The notes: generated from the letters alone by a model not told the origin. A DNA stretch of 64,000 nucleotides from Candidatus Iainarchaeum sp. (GCA_021158055.1 JAGGVJ010000019.1:1-64000), one strand, 5' to 3'. Positions 59,094-62,760 are shown, numbered from the stretch's first letter. Program-made: numbers and translations.

Positions 59094-59993
59094 CTATTTT
59101 AGTGAGTGATGTCTTTCAAGAATGTTGCCTGCAAGCTTAAAGTTTCCGAAAGGCATTATGTGCGCGCCTGCAAAGCCCAGCTTTTTTGCCTTTTCCAGCA
59201 TTTCATTGGAAAATTTCAGGTTGCTTTGTGTGTCTTCTATTTCTGAAATGACTTCTTCGGGAATTGTTATTCCAGGCACATGTTCATTAAGGAACTTTGC
59301 TGTTTTTGCAGAGGTGAGCAAAAGGATTCCGGGAAGGATTTTGGTGTTGATGTCTTTTGTTGCTTTAAAGAATTCTTCAAGCAAAGTTAAGTCAAAAAAA
59401 GGCTGGGTCTGAATAAATTGCGCTCCAAAAAGTGCTTTTTGCCTGATTCTTTTTATTTCAGGGTTTTTTGCTGTTGCAAAAGATCCTCCGCCTATGAATG
59501 CATCAAACTTGTTTTCAAGGGGGTTTCCGGCAAAGTCAGCTGAATTTTCAATCATGGTGTTTACTTTTGAGATCAGTTCAATTGAGTTCATTTCAAAAAC
59601 TGCTTTGGCTTTGGGGTTGTCCCCGAGTTTCGGGGGGTCGCCTGTTAAAAGCAAAAAGTTGTCTATTCCTTTTGCTTTTGCGCCAAGCAAGTCGGATTGT
59701 ATTGCAATTGAGTTCCTGTCCCGGCATGTTATCTGCATAATCGGTTCAAACCCAAGCGAAACAAGTTCAATTGACGGCACAAGCGAGTTCATTATGACGT
59801 TTCCCATGGGACAGTCCACTACATTCACTGCGTCTGCAAGCACGCAGGCTTTCAGAGCACTGTTTGTGAACTGGAAGGAGGGGGACTTCATAGGGTCTAT
59901 TTCAATTGTGAGTGCAAACTGATTGTTTTCAAGTTTTTCCCGGAAAGTCTGGATTTCCTTAAGATCGTGGTTTTGAAAGTTGTTTTTTTTCAT
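59094..59993 (-). CDS. MetF-like methylenetetrahydropterin reductase
   Basis: 299 aa TIM-barrel flavoprotein of the MTHFR family. ALTIEIDPMKSPSF, PIMQITCRDRNSIAIQSDLLGAKAKGIDNFLLLTGDPPKLGDNP, GGSFATAKNPEIKRIRQKALFGAQFIQTQPFFD are signature segments. Would reduce methylene- to methyl-tetrahydropterin with FAD. It is last in a minus-strand operon after ThyA and a DUF4346-like gene, with MtrA and MtrH upstream, so it probably supplies the methyl group used by MtrH. Ribosome site AAGGAT before the ATG. Confidence 0.88.
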   Translation of the reverse strand: MKKNNFQNHDLKEIQTFREKLENNQFALTIEIDPMKSPSFQFTNSALKACVLADAVNVVDCPMGNVIMNSLVPSIELVSLGFEPIMQITCRDRNSIAIQSDLLGAKAKGIDNFLLLTGDPPKLGDNPKAKAVFEMNSIELISKVNTMIENSADFAGNPLENKFDAFIGGGSFATAKNPEIKRIRQKALFGAQFIQTQPFFDLTLLEEFFKATKDINTKILPGILLLTSAKTAKFLNEHVPGITIPEEVISEIEDTQSNLKFSNEMLEKAKKLGFAGAHIMPFGNFKLAGNILERHHSLK

Positions 59994-60049
59994 GTTATCC
60001 TTGGTTTGCTTTTGTTTTACGTTAAAGATTGTTTTCGTTTTTACTGAAA

Positions 60050-60457
60050 TTATTTTTGGCTTTTTGAAATTTCAATGGGTTTGTCCTGAGTATATTGCAG
60101 ACCGAATTTTAAAGACATTTCTGCCTTGTGCAATTCTTTTCCAAGGTATGCGTAGTGTTCGGGAAGAGACGCTTTTTCGTTTTCGATTATTGCCTGGTAT
60201 ACTGCAGTGGCGGTTTTTCCTACTATTGTGCTTGTCAGTTTTCCTGTAAGCATGGCACCGCCGTCAAGCACATTTTCGTAGTGTTCTGCTATAATTTGCT
60301 TTTTTTCCAGGTCATTGTGGATTACAAAAAACCCGTTCGGATCGTATTCAATTGATTTGCGTTCTTTTGCCTTGATTAATCTTACGTTATTGTCGTCGTT
60401 TTTGTTTTCTTCTGTTATTTTGAATTGTCTTTTGAGGAATTCTATTTGTTCACTCAA
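60050..60457 (-). CDS. DUF4346-like protein in the one-carbon operon
   Basis: 135 aa. YDPNGFFVIHND, EHYENVLDGGAMLTGK, AVYQAIIENEKASLPEHYAYLGKELHKAEMSLKFGLQYTQD recall the DUF4346 family, which occurs near pterin and Mtr-type genes. Starts with TTG overlapping the ThyA stop (eight bases). No catalytic residues are assigned. Its place between ThyA and MetF suggests a role with folate or methyl transfer. Name is by resemblance only. Confidence 0.6.
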   Translation of the reverse strand: MSEQIEFLKRQFKITEENKNDDNNVRLIKAKERKSIEYDPNGFFVIHNDLEKKQIIAEHYENVLDGGAMLTGKLTSTIVGKTATAVYQAIIENEKASLPEHYAYLGKELHKAEMSLKFGLQYTQDKPIEISKSQK

Positions 60458-61136
60458 TATTCAACACCTCTTTTACGTTTTCCCAGTTGTGGTCATAGAT
60501 GTGGGCTGAACCGGAAACACAAGTGATGCTGCCGGTTTCAAAACCGCTTCCGTCTGCGACTTTTTTCATAAGGTTGGCAAGGCCGTACATATTTGCGGGC
60601 CAGGCTCCAAAACAGTCGTGAGAGCGAAAGTAAAGGTGAAGATGCAGCTTGCTGTCTCTTACCTGGAAATGAGTGAATATGAGGCAAGGCGCTTCATCGG
60701 ATTCGGTGTCAATTGGAGGAATCCAAGTGTGGCATATTGCTCTTCTTGTGTTTGATGAAGCTTTCAGTTTTTTTATCACCCAGTCAATCTGGTTTAATTC
60801 ATTGTTCCATTTGTGCAGGCGGTTCCCGTAAGTGTATTTGAATTCTCCCGGGTCGCTTGAAAGAATCGTCTGGTTTGTGTACTGTTCAAGCCGTTCTTTT
60901 GACCAGGGAAACCCTTTTGGTGTCATTGGCTCTTCAAGCGGGTTTTCTATGTATGCCAAAAGCTGGAGTATTTCTTTTGTGTCGTTGTCGTACTCGCTGT
61001 GAAGAATGTGCCCCCGTTTCCATATTGCCTTGATTACTTTTGGCCAGGTTTCCCCGATTGTTTTTCCTTTGACAAAAGTTCCGATTTTTGTCGGCTTTCC
61101 TGGTTCATTGCTTTCAAAAGTCAAGTGTGTCCCCAT
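60450..61136 (-). CDS. thyA: thymidylate synthase, methanogen type
   Basis: 228 aa, length of the archaeal ThyA family. It turns dUMP into dTMP using methylene-tetrahydropterin. Catalytic Cys151 in EAPCLIFTHFQV, RRAICHTW (130-137), RSHDCFGAWPANMYGL (171-186) and HIYDHN are conserved. It lies in the same operon as MetF, MtrH and MtrA, linking dTMP synthesis with methyl transfer. The downstream gene overlaps its stop. Confidence 0.9.
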   Translation of the reverse strand: MGTHLTFESNEPGKPTKIGTFVKGKTIGETWPKVIKAIWKRGHILHSEYDNDTKEILQLLAYIENPLEEPMTPKGFPWSKERLEQYTNQTILSSDPGEFKYTYGNRLHKWNNELNQIDWVIKKLKASSNTRRAICHTWIPPIDTESDEAPCLIFTHFQVRDSKLHLHLYFRSHDCFGAWPANMYGLANLMKKVADGSGFETGSITCVSGSAHIYDHNWENVKEVLNIE

Positions 61137-61202
61137 CTATTCTTGTTTTTTTGTTCATTTATAGTTTGCGTAGGTTTCGTGAAGTTTGTGTTTTTTGTTT
61201 TT

Positions 61203-62099
61203 TTATTTATAGATATTTAACCCGAAATCGTTTTCCGCTTCTTTTTGCATCTCGTGCACGAATGCTGCTGCGGGAAACACGTTTTCTGCGAGTTCGATTG
61301 GTCCGAAAAGCAAAAAGTTTGAACCAAAAGCCATCTGCATTGAATTTGCAGCTACATTGCATTCGTTTTTGAATTTTTTGTGGTTTGAGTCTGAAAGCCA
61401 TTCCCACGACGATATCGCATTGTGTATTCCGTTTCCGGATGGAAGCCCGAACTTTGCTTTAACTGAAGAAACGGCGCGGACAGATGCCGCGGCACCATGG
61501 CCCAGCGGAGTGGTTGCCGTGTCAATCAAAAAATTCTGCACCCCTGCTTCTTTTGCAATATCAACAAGGCTTTTTTTAAGGAGATTGTCTTCGCAGAGCA
61601 GGTTTAGCTTCCCGGCAAGCGATGAATCCTTTGGATTGTATAAGAGGATTATCGCCGATTCAACGTCTGTGTTTTTGAGTTCGGTTATTTCTTTTTCAGT
61701 TACTGAAAAATTTATGGAGTTATAAATCATTTGGTCGCTTACGCCTGTTTCTGTTGCGTACTCGGCGCCGTAAAGGCGTGTTTCCGATTCTGTTGAGTCA
61801 ATTATAATTGGGCCTTCAAAGAGATTGCATGCAAAATCAATGCGTTCTTCCATTGACTGCGGGCTGTCTGCAAATATTTGTATTGCGCCGGGTATTCCTG
61901 TTGAATCTGATGCTTCAAGCTGTTTGTTTATGAGGTCTTCAGCGCGTTTTGAGTCAAATGAACCTGATTCGCCGGTGAGTATGTTGTGTTTTGAATAAAA
62001 AATTGTTCCGCAAAGCATGGTTGGTGTTTGCCCTGGCTGGCCACCGATTTTTGTTCCGGCAATGTCAAAAATTTTTTGTGGTTTTGAAAAAACAAACAT
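61203..62099 (-). CDS. MtrH-like methyltetrahydropterin:corrinoid methyltransferase
   Basis: 298 aa TIM-barrel of the MtrH family. Diagnostic: MFVFSKPQKIFDIAGTKIGGQPGQTPTMLCGTIFYSKHNI, YNSINFSV, FLIDTATTPLGHGAAASVRAV, FGLPSGNGIHNAISSWEWL, and FGPIELAENVFPAAAFV. In methanogens it moves methyl from methyl-H4MPT to the corrinoid of MtrA. Here it sits directly after an MtrA gene, but MtrB-G are not in the window. Ribosome site GGTGA before ATG. Confidence 0.9.
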   Translation of the reverse strand: MFVFSKPQKIFDIAGTKIGGQPGQTPTMLCGTIFYSKHNILTGESGSFDSKRAEDLINKQLEASDSTGIPGAIQIFADSPQSMEERIDFACNLFEGPIIIDSTESETRLYGAEYATETGVSDQMIYNSINFSVTEKEITELKNTDVESAIILLYNPKDSSLAGKLNLLCEDNLLKKSLVDIAKEAGVQNFLIDTATTPLGHGAAASVRAVSSVKAKFGLPSGNGIHNAISSWEWLSDSNHKKFKNECNVAANSMQMAFGSNFLLFGPIELAENVFPAAAFVHEMQKEAENDFGLNIYK

Positions 62100-62116
62100 T
62101 TACTTCACCGTTTTTA

Positions 62117-62728
62117 CTATGCTGTCTGGTTTGCCTCACTGGATTTTTCACCTATCACGCCTGTTTCGGGATCGAAAACTATTTTGTTTTCCGCGTCAAT
62201 AACTGCGATATTTTCGCCGAGATTTAGGTTTATTTTTTTTTCTTTTTCTTTTTTTGTCACAAAAAACGGTTCTCCAAAATACCCCTGGTTTTCAAGTGCG
62301 CATCGTTTGATTTCTTTTATGATTGTGTCTTTGTTTTGTGTTCCCGTTAAATCAATGACCTGGACCTGTTCCCTGAAACGGTTCACTGCTTCCTGCGGAA
62401 GGTTTTCAAGAAACGGGATGGCTCCCTTTGAATTTATGATGCGTTTGTTTTCGTCCAACCCAAACCTGCTAAGTGAAACAATTGATTGTCCTGTAAAGTG
62501 TCCTGTGACTTCTTCCCCGCACACAATTAAAAATCTTATGTTCGGGTTTGCAATCAGGTTGGTTACGACGCGCTCTATTCCAAGGTTTTCTGTGAGAGCG
62601 CGCCCGTACAAGGCAACTTCGTTCAAGTCAAGTTTTATGTCTGAAAAAAGAGTGAGTACTGAAATGCTTGCGTTTGGATTTACAACAGTATAGCTCCCCT
62701 GCAGCACAGGCCATTTTTGTTTTTCCAT
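62117..62728 (-). CDS. soluble MtrA-like corrinoid protein, no membrane anchor
   Basis: About 203 aa. W PVLQGSYTVVNPNASISVLTL and TENLGIERVVTNLIANPNIRFLIVCGEEVTGHFTG match MtrA; the His of VTGHFTG (H77) is where the corrinoid-binding histidine lies. The C-terminal membrane anchor of methanogen MtrA is missing; the protein ends in a polar tail. A minus-strand TATA box (CTATAAAAG, 62752-62760) 25 bp before the ATG gives a leaderless operon start. Alternative GTG start one codon earlier. Confidence 0.87.
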   Translation of the reverse strand: MEKQKWPVLQGSYTVVNPNASISVLTLFSDIKLDLNEVALYGRALTENLGIERVVTNLIANPNIRFLIVCGEEVTGHFTGQSIVSLSRFGLDENKRIINSKGAIPFLENLPQEAVNRFREQVQVIDLTGTQNKDTIIKEIKRCALENQGYFGEPFFVTKKEKEKKINLNLGENIAVIDAENKIVFDPETGVIGEKSSEANQTA

Positions 62729-62751
62729 CACTATGAATATGGCAACGGATT

Positions 62752-62760
62752 CTTTTATAG
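62752..62760 (-). promoter_or_regulatory. TATA box of the MtrA-MtrH-ThyA operon
   Basis: CTATAAAAG on the minus strand, about 25 bp before the MtrA start codon, which suggests transcription starts close to the start codon and a leaderless first gene. No other candidate lies nearby. Confidence 0.65.

What the first reader, a model, noticed from the sequence alone, without database searches (positions are those of the whole stretch)
59094..62760. Compact MtrA-MtrH-ThyA-DUF4346-MetF operon without the membrane Mtr complex
A single leaderless minus-strand operon (TATA box at 62752-62760) encodes a soluble MtrA with its corrinoid histidine (H77) but no C-terminal anchor, MtrH, methanogen-type ThyA, a DUF4346-like protein and a MetF-like reductase. 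In methanogens MtrA-H form a membrane Na pump and Mer, not MetF, makes methyl-H4MPT. Here the parts read as: methylene-pterin is used for dTMP (ThyA) or reduced to methyl-pterin (MetF-like), and MtrH passes the methyl to cobalamin on MtrA. The final acceptor is unknown (a core methionine synthase is one option). This joins thymidylate and methyl metabolism in one operon and could be a stand-alone, non-methanogenic methyl route.
Basis: partly seen in the sequence, partly recalled or inferred. Interest (0 to 1): 0.85.

Follow-up and report, generated by a model that had tools for sequence, protein, structure and literature searches.

The report
Stand-alone MtrA-MtrH-ThyA-MetF methyl relay
A small, non-methane-making archaeon carries a soluble set of enzymes that probably loads a methyl group onto vitamin B12, and its operon has a DNA-building (thymidylate) enzyme in the place where related archaea have a methionine-making enzyme, which raises the testable question of whether B12-bound methyl groups can be used to make the T of DNA.

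Summary
Five co-directional genes (62731 to 59094, minus strand) encode soluble MtrA, MtrH, methanogen-type ThyA, a DUF4346 protein and a MetF-family reductase. The MtrA cobalt dyad (H78/E48) and all four MtrH pterin residues are intact. The 95%-complete 1.15 Mb genome has no McrA, MtrD or MtrE. It also has no match to either homocysteine methyltransferase family tried (PF01717, PF02574), so the proposed core methionine synthase acceptor was not found. Among 87 genomes of the phylum, only this one has MtrH.

Comparative context is the main gain. In Thermoplasmata-type loci, 14 carry MtrA-MtrH-core methionine synthase (the one tested is MesA family), 12 with DUF4346 next and 6 with MetF in front. 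This supports a published prediction that MesA takes its methyl from MtrA. In the window, ThyA sits in the methionine synthase slot. MtrA(-like) domains are also fused to ThyA in relatives (corrinoid ligands lost) and in one Methanoperedens genome (cobalt His kept). mesA abuts thyA in two Methanobacteriaceae.

Best reading: an anabolic soluble methyl-pterin-to-corrinoid relay, final acceptor unresolved. The most novel open reading is a methyl-corrinoid-dependent thymidylate synthase.

The parts
62117..62731 (-). soluble MtrA (204 aa from GTG 62731; ATG at 62728), corrinoid protein with H78/E48 dyad, no C-terminal anchor
   Evidence: PF04208 E 2.1e-51; 47% and 43% identity to the two PDB MtrA chains aligned; H78 and E48 align with M. 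jannaschii His84 and Glu54 (PMC4915002)
61203..62099 (-). MtrH (298 aa), methyl-pterin:corrinoid methyltransferase, TIM barrel
   Evidence: PF02007 E 4.4e-97, TIGR01114 over cut-off; pterin ligands D101, N127, D193, N227 align with the conserved residues named in PMC10998594
60450..61136 (-). ThyA, methanogen-type thymidylate synthase (228 aa), catalytic C151
   Evidence: TIGR03283 214.6 bits, cut-off 174.55; C151, R131, R132, R171, S172, D174, N182, H212, Y214 and E55 kept in alignment A4
60050..60457 (-). DUF4346 protein (135 aa), start overlapping the end of thyA by 8 bases
   Evidence: PF14251 E 3.2e-24; 37-45% identity to the DUF4346 genes of Thermoplasmata operons
59094..59993 (-). MetF-family methylene-tetrahydropterin reductase (299 aa)
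   Evidence: PF02219 E 5e-25; best NCBIfam match is the C-terminal half of PRK08645, 219 bits, below its whole-protein cut-off
62754..62760 (-). TATA-box-like CTATAAA about 26 bases upstream of the mtrA start
   Evidence: sequence position; consistent with a leaderless transcript, not tested

Best explanation
The operon encodes a soluble, anabolic one-carbon relay in a small non-methanogenic archaeon. Serine hydroxymethyltransferase (elsewhere in the genome) makes methylene-pterin; ThyA can use it for dTMP, and the MetF-like enzyme reduces it to methyl-pterin. MtrH moves the methyl to cob(I)amide on soluble MtrA, giving methyl-Co(III)-MtrA. This is a variant of a wider archaeal module whose output, in Thermoplasmata, is most likely methionine through a core methionine synthase encoded next to mtrH. 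Here that enzyme is missing and ThyA holds its place. Shown here: gene content, order, conserved ligands, and the absence of McrA, MtrD, MtrE, PF01717 and PF02574. Inferred from family knowledge: each reaction and its direction. Not settled: the final acceptor. My estimates are homocysteine through an undetected enzyme about 0.3, dUMP on ThyA about 0.2, another thiol or unknown acceptor about 0.3, net flow in reverse about 0.2.
For: Strong family assignments. MtrA H78/E48 match the cobalt-ligand dyad. MtrH D101/N127/D193/N227 match all four pterin contacts. SHMT present at C27. McrA, MtrE and MtrD absent with a positive control. Core MetE and PF02574 absent. The homologous operon MetF-MtrA-MtrH-core MetE-DUF4346 occurs in Thermoplasmata, with MtrA-MtrH-core MetE in 14 loci, and the one tested core MetE passes the NF002119 cut-off. 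Independent prediction that MesA draws on MtrA (PMC7857596).
Against: No acceptor enzyme is identified, so the relay has no proven outlet. The pterin used is unknown. MtrH groups with canonical Mtr-complex MtrH rather than with the Thermoplasmata module, so the two operons are alike in content but not shown to share recent ancestry.
Confidence: 0.6

Rival explanations
1. Methyl-Co(III)-MtrA hands its methyl straight to dUMP on ThyA, so this is a methyl-corrinoid-dependent thymidylate synthase. The C5 carbanion of the Cys151-dUMP adduct would attack CH3-Co(III); no dihydropterin is made and no DHFR is needed.
For: ThyA sits where the acceptor enzyme sits in the homologous operon. MtrA(-like) domains are fused to ThyA, with Pfam support for both domains in L002 and L138 and a sub-cut-off MtrA match in L004; the L138 fusion keeps the cobalt His. 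mesA is next to thyA in two Methanobacteriaceae. DHFR PF00186 is absent. The cofactor of the archaeal ThyA clusters discussed in PMC9012536 is stated to be hard to predict for lack of biochemistry.
Against: ThyA keeps the whole archaeal ThyA signature, including E55, the likely equivalent of E. coli Glu58. The fused MtrA-like domains in the phylum have lost both His and Glu, and the four genomes with them also lack DHFR without having MtrH, so DHFR loss is not specific. The L138 ThyA has lost the dUMP-site D and Y. No such activity is known to me.
Confidence: 0.18
2. The relay makes methionine through a methionine synthase that is missing from the assembly or of an unknown kind.
For: Thermoplasmata operons pair the same parts with a core methionine synthase; the genome is 94.9% complete.
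Against: Neither PF01717, nor a profile of the operon's own core-MetE relatives up to E = 10, nor PF02574 finds one. Only 7 of 87 genomes of the phylum have PF01717, so lack of these synthases is usual there.
Confidence: 0.3
3. The relay runs backwards: a methyl group reaching MtrA from outside is moved by MtrH to the pterin and oxidised by MetF to methylene-pterin for ThyA.
For: MetF and ThyA share methylene-pterin and one operon; MtrH relatives such as MtgA move methyl from corrinoid to H4F.
Against: No substrate:corrinoid methyltransferase gene lies in the operon; SHMT already supplies methylene-pterin; MetF normally runs towards methyl-pterin.
Confidence: 0.15
4. Only shared regulation: independent pterin enzymes kept in one transcript, with no transfer between MtrA and ThyA.
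For: ThyA, MetF and MtrH all act on C1-pterins; the operon is found in one genome only.
Against: The same pairing recurs as fusion proteins, and the MtrA-like part of one fusion pair is under purifying selection (dN 0.21, dS 1.5).
Confidence: 0.3

Closest known systems
MtrA and MtrH of the methanogen Mtr complex (methyl-H4MPT:coenzyme M methyltransferase)
   Same: same families, cobalt dyad and pterin residues
   Different: no MtrD or MtrE, no anchor on MtrA, no McrA; so no Na pump and no methane
Thermoplasmata MetF-MtrA-MtrH-core methionine synthase-DUF4346 operon (L013, L015, L029, L033, L041, L087)
   Same: four of five families and a very similar order
   Different: ThyA replaces the core methionine synthase; MetF is last instead of first; MtrH falls in another clade; these Thermoplasmata genomes have no TIGR03283 ThyA
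MtrA-like-ThyA-DUF4346 fusion proteins of the same phylum (G069, G075, G083; G070 cut by a contig end)
   Same: MtrA(-like), ThyA and DUF4346 in the same order
   Different: one chain, corrinoid ligands lost, no MtrH in those genomes
MtrA-ThyA fusion in a Methanoperedens genome (L138)
   Same: both domains, cobalt His kept
   Different: Glu of the dyad replaced by Ala, two dUMP-site residues changed; the genome has a second ThyA
Stand-alone MtrA/MtrH and MtrAH fusions of Asgard archaea (PMC11291895, PMC9635834)
   Same: MtrA/MtrH outside the Mtr complex, acceptor unknown
   Different: no linked ThyA or MetF in the passages read

Membership tests
MtrA (PF04208) | profile match over curated cut-off | tested here: met
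   174.4 bits, cut-off 25
MtrA (PF04208) | lower axial His and its Glu partner | tested here: met
   H78, E48
MtrA (PF04208) | binds cobamide | not testable with these tools
   needs protein
MtrH | equivalog TIGR01114 over cut-off and four pterin residues | tested here: met
   322 bits, cut-off 271; D101, N127, D193, N227
Mtr Na-pumping complex | membrane subunits MtrD and MtrE in the genome | tested here: not met
   absent; control genome positive
Methanogenesis | McrA | tested here: not met
   absent
ThyA methanogen type (TIGR03283) | score over cut-off and catalytic residues | tested here: met
   214.6 bits, cut-off 174.55; residues
MetF / MTHFR (PF02219) | profile over curated cut-off | tested here: met
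   88.8 bits, cut-off 24
MetF / MTHFR (PF02219) | equivalog-level score | tested here: not met
   best NF006396 219 bits, cut-off 453 for the whole two-domain protein; TIGR00676 56 bits, cut-off 294
MtrA-MtrH-core methionine synthase module | core methionine synthase (PF01717) in operon or genome | tested here: not met
MtrA-MtrH-core methionine synthase module | MtrA, MtrH and DUF4346 linked | tested here: met
Canonical ThyA-DHFR thymidylate cycle | DHFR (PF00186) in the genome | tested here: not met
   a divergent or RibD-like reductase is not excluded

The most novel reading that the evidence does not exclude
A corrinoid-dependent thymidylate synthase: MetF and MtrH load soluble MtrA with a methyl group, and ThyA takes that methyl from methyl-Co(III)-MtrA to turn dUMP into dTMP, without oxidising the pterin and without DHFR.
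Probability: 0.18. Interest if true: 0.93.

Novelty: new variant of a known kind. Interest (0 to 1): 0.62.

Why it matters
The role of MtrA/MtrH outside methanogenesis is called unclear in the literature (PMC9635834, PMC11291895), and the methyl donor of MesA methionine synthases was only a prediction (PMC7857596). The Thermoplasmata operon found here gives direct gene-neighbourhood support for MtrA as that donor in non-methanogens. The window operon and the MtrA-ThyA fusions raise a second, testable possibility: that methyl-corrinoid also serves DNA precursor synthesis in some archaea, where the cofactor of ThyA is poorly studied (PMC9012536, PMC9931769).

Tried and rejected
Methanogen locus: rejected, no McrA, MtrE or MtrD. 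Contamination or recent foreign island: no sign, operon G+C equals the window's. Transfer of the whole Thermoplasmata operon: not supported for MtrH, which groups with canonical Mtr-complex MtrH at 100/99; MtrA is unresolved. DUF4346 structure model (pLDDT 71) gave no convincing PDB match by Foldseek (best E 0.3) or VIA-align (best Z 5.4); nothing is concluded from it. DHFR absence as proof of the corrinoid route: rejected, relatives without MtrH lack it too. Viral contigs: no relative of MtrA or of the L138 fusion. The two classic papers on archaeal dTMP synthesis (Krone 1994, Nyce and White 1996) could not be read; PMC177745 is not held. Searches failed on a wrong ThyA coordinate and were repeated.

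Full report
WHAT IS THERE. The window is G000:C16 of a 1,147,527-base, 45-contig, 94.9% complete genome. On the minus strand five genes follow each other with gaps of 17, 66, -8 and 56 bases: mtrA (62731-62117), mtrH (62099-61203), thyA (61136-60450), a DUF4346 gene (60457-60050) and a metF-like gene (59993-59094). Family assignments are unambiguous. The genes on both sides, likely A-type ATPase subunits (my reading of the sequence) and a CDP-alcohol phosphatidyltransferase, run the other way. A CTATAAA at 62760-62754 fits a leaderless start. The operon's base composition equals that of the window.

ARE THE ACTIVE SITES INTACT. MtrA H78 and E48 match M. jannaschii His84 and Glu54, the cobalt ligand and its partner (PMC4915002). 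MtrH D101, N127, D193 and N227 match the four residues placed at the pterin in the published MtrH model (PMC10998594; mapping). ThyA keeps C151, the two arginines, R171/S172/D174, N182, H212/Y214 and E55. By eye the MetF-like protein keeps the Glu, GDPP and TQPFFD motifs of the family; this was not tested against a ligand-bound structure.

THE GENOME. Single copies of MtrA and MtrH. No McrA, MtrE or MtrD: one concatenated query found all three in a methanogen control and none in G000 (only a weak E 0.02 match). No core methionine synthase by PF01717 or by a profile of ten operon-linked relatives up to E = 10. No PF02574 enzyme. SHMT is present. DHFR is absent.

THE SAME MODULE WITH METHIONINE SYNTHASE. 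A scan of 84,980 species for MtrA relatives kept the best 80 loci. Of these, 14 have MtrA-MtrH directly followed by a core MetE gene (L013, L015, L017, L018, L019, L020, L022 partial, L029, L033, L041, L052, L054, L062, L087), nearly all labelled Thermoplasmata, Thermoplasmatota or Methanomassiliicoccales; 12 have DUF4346 next, and six (L013, L015, L029, L033, L041, L087) also have MetF in front. L016 has MetF-MtrA-MtrH without an adjacent core MetE. The L015 core MetE scores 261.5 bits against NF002119, cut-off 258; the Methanobacteriaceae mesA neighbour of thyA matches the same family at 401 bits. Price and colleagues found MesA only in methanogens and predicted that it takes its methyl from MtrA (PMC7857596). 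The operon above is gene-neighbourhood evidence for that, and extends it. I did not test each of these genomes for mcr; 'non-methanogenic' rests on their record names, and the Methanomassiliicoccales-labelled ones may be methanogens. These Thermoplasmata-type genomes have no TIGR03283-type ThyA.

THE LINK BETWEEN MTRA AND THYA. In the phylum, six genomes besides G000 have a methanogen-type ThyA match beyond the generic background, clear in five and weak in G072 (G069, G070, G072, G074, G075, G083). In G069 and G075 it is one chain with an N-terminal MtrA-like domain and a C-terminal DUF4346, with Pfam matches for all three (the MtrA part of G075 is just under the cut-off). G083 has ThyA and DUF4346 by Pfam and an MtrA-like region by alignment only. 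G070 is cut by its contig end, and G072 (802 aa) has no Pfam match and is uncertain. G074 is unfused. The MtrA-like parts have lost both corrinoid ligands but evolve under constraint between G069 and G070 (dN 0.21, dS 1.5). A Methanoperedens genome holds a 445-residue MtrA-ThyA fusion with the cobalt His retained, Glu changed to Ala, and two dUMP-site residues changed. In two Methanobacteriaceae, mesA and thyA are adjacent.

MECHANISM. From the families: serine to methylene-pterin (SHMT), reduction to methyl-pterin (MetF-like), methyl transfer to cob(I)amide on MtrA (MtrH). In Thermoplasmata the next step is very likely homocysteine to methionine. In G000 that enzyme is not found. The simplest statement is a soluble anabolic methyl-to-corrinoid relay with an unidentified acceptor; ThyA is an obvious candidate because it holds the acceptor slot and is fused to MtrA domains elsewhere. 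Chemically, the enzyme-bound dUMP carbanion could attack methyl-Co(III), but nothing here shows it, and ThyA looks like an ordinary archaeal ThyA.

HISTORY. MtrH of the window falls with the canonical Mtr-complex MtrH (100/99) and outside the Thermoplasmata clade; MtrA has a long branch and no supported place. So the operon is not a simple recent copy of the Thermoplasmata one.

LIMITS. ThyX, cobalamin uptake, RACE, CODH/ACS and substrate:corrinoid methyltransferases were not searched. The genome is draft. MtrA-ThyA fusions were found only through genomes I happened to search, so their frequency is unknown. The literature check is limited to an open-access library; DUF4346 is not mentioned in it.

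Noticed in passing
L013, L015, L017-L020, L022, L029, L033, L041, L052, L054, L062, L087: Operon MtrA-MtrH-core methionine synthase-DUF4346 (often with MetF in front), nearly all in Thermoplasmata records; gives stand-alone MtrA/MtrH a likely role in methionine synthesis.
   Followed up: partly
L138 1489-2823 (-): 445-residue MtrA-ThyA fusion in a Methanoperedens genome, cobalt His kept but dUMP-site D and Y changed; may methylate another nucleotide.
   Followed up: partly
L002, L003, L004/L116, L112/L122: MtrA-like-ThyA-DUF4346 chains (L003 cut by its contig end) whose MtrA part has lost the corrinoid ligands yet is conserved.
   Followed up: partly
L137 547-1803 (-): Tandem ThyA-ThyA protein (419 aa, two PF00303 stretches) in an Archaeoglobi genome; the N-terminal copy looks degenerate.
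   Followed up: no
L105, L108, L110, L113: DUF4346 fused to a ferredoxin-like domain (by eye) in several genomes of the phylum; hints at a redox or cofactor-handling role for DUF4346.
   Followed up: no
L101-L104, L106: DUF4346 gene next to a GTPase/ATPase-like gene (nickel or corrinoid insertion type by eye) and ferredoxins.
   Followed up: no
L125 223-2628 (+): 802-residue protein with a weak ThyA match and an MtrA-like N terminus by eye; no Pfam match.
   Followed up: no
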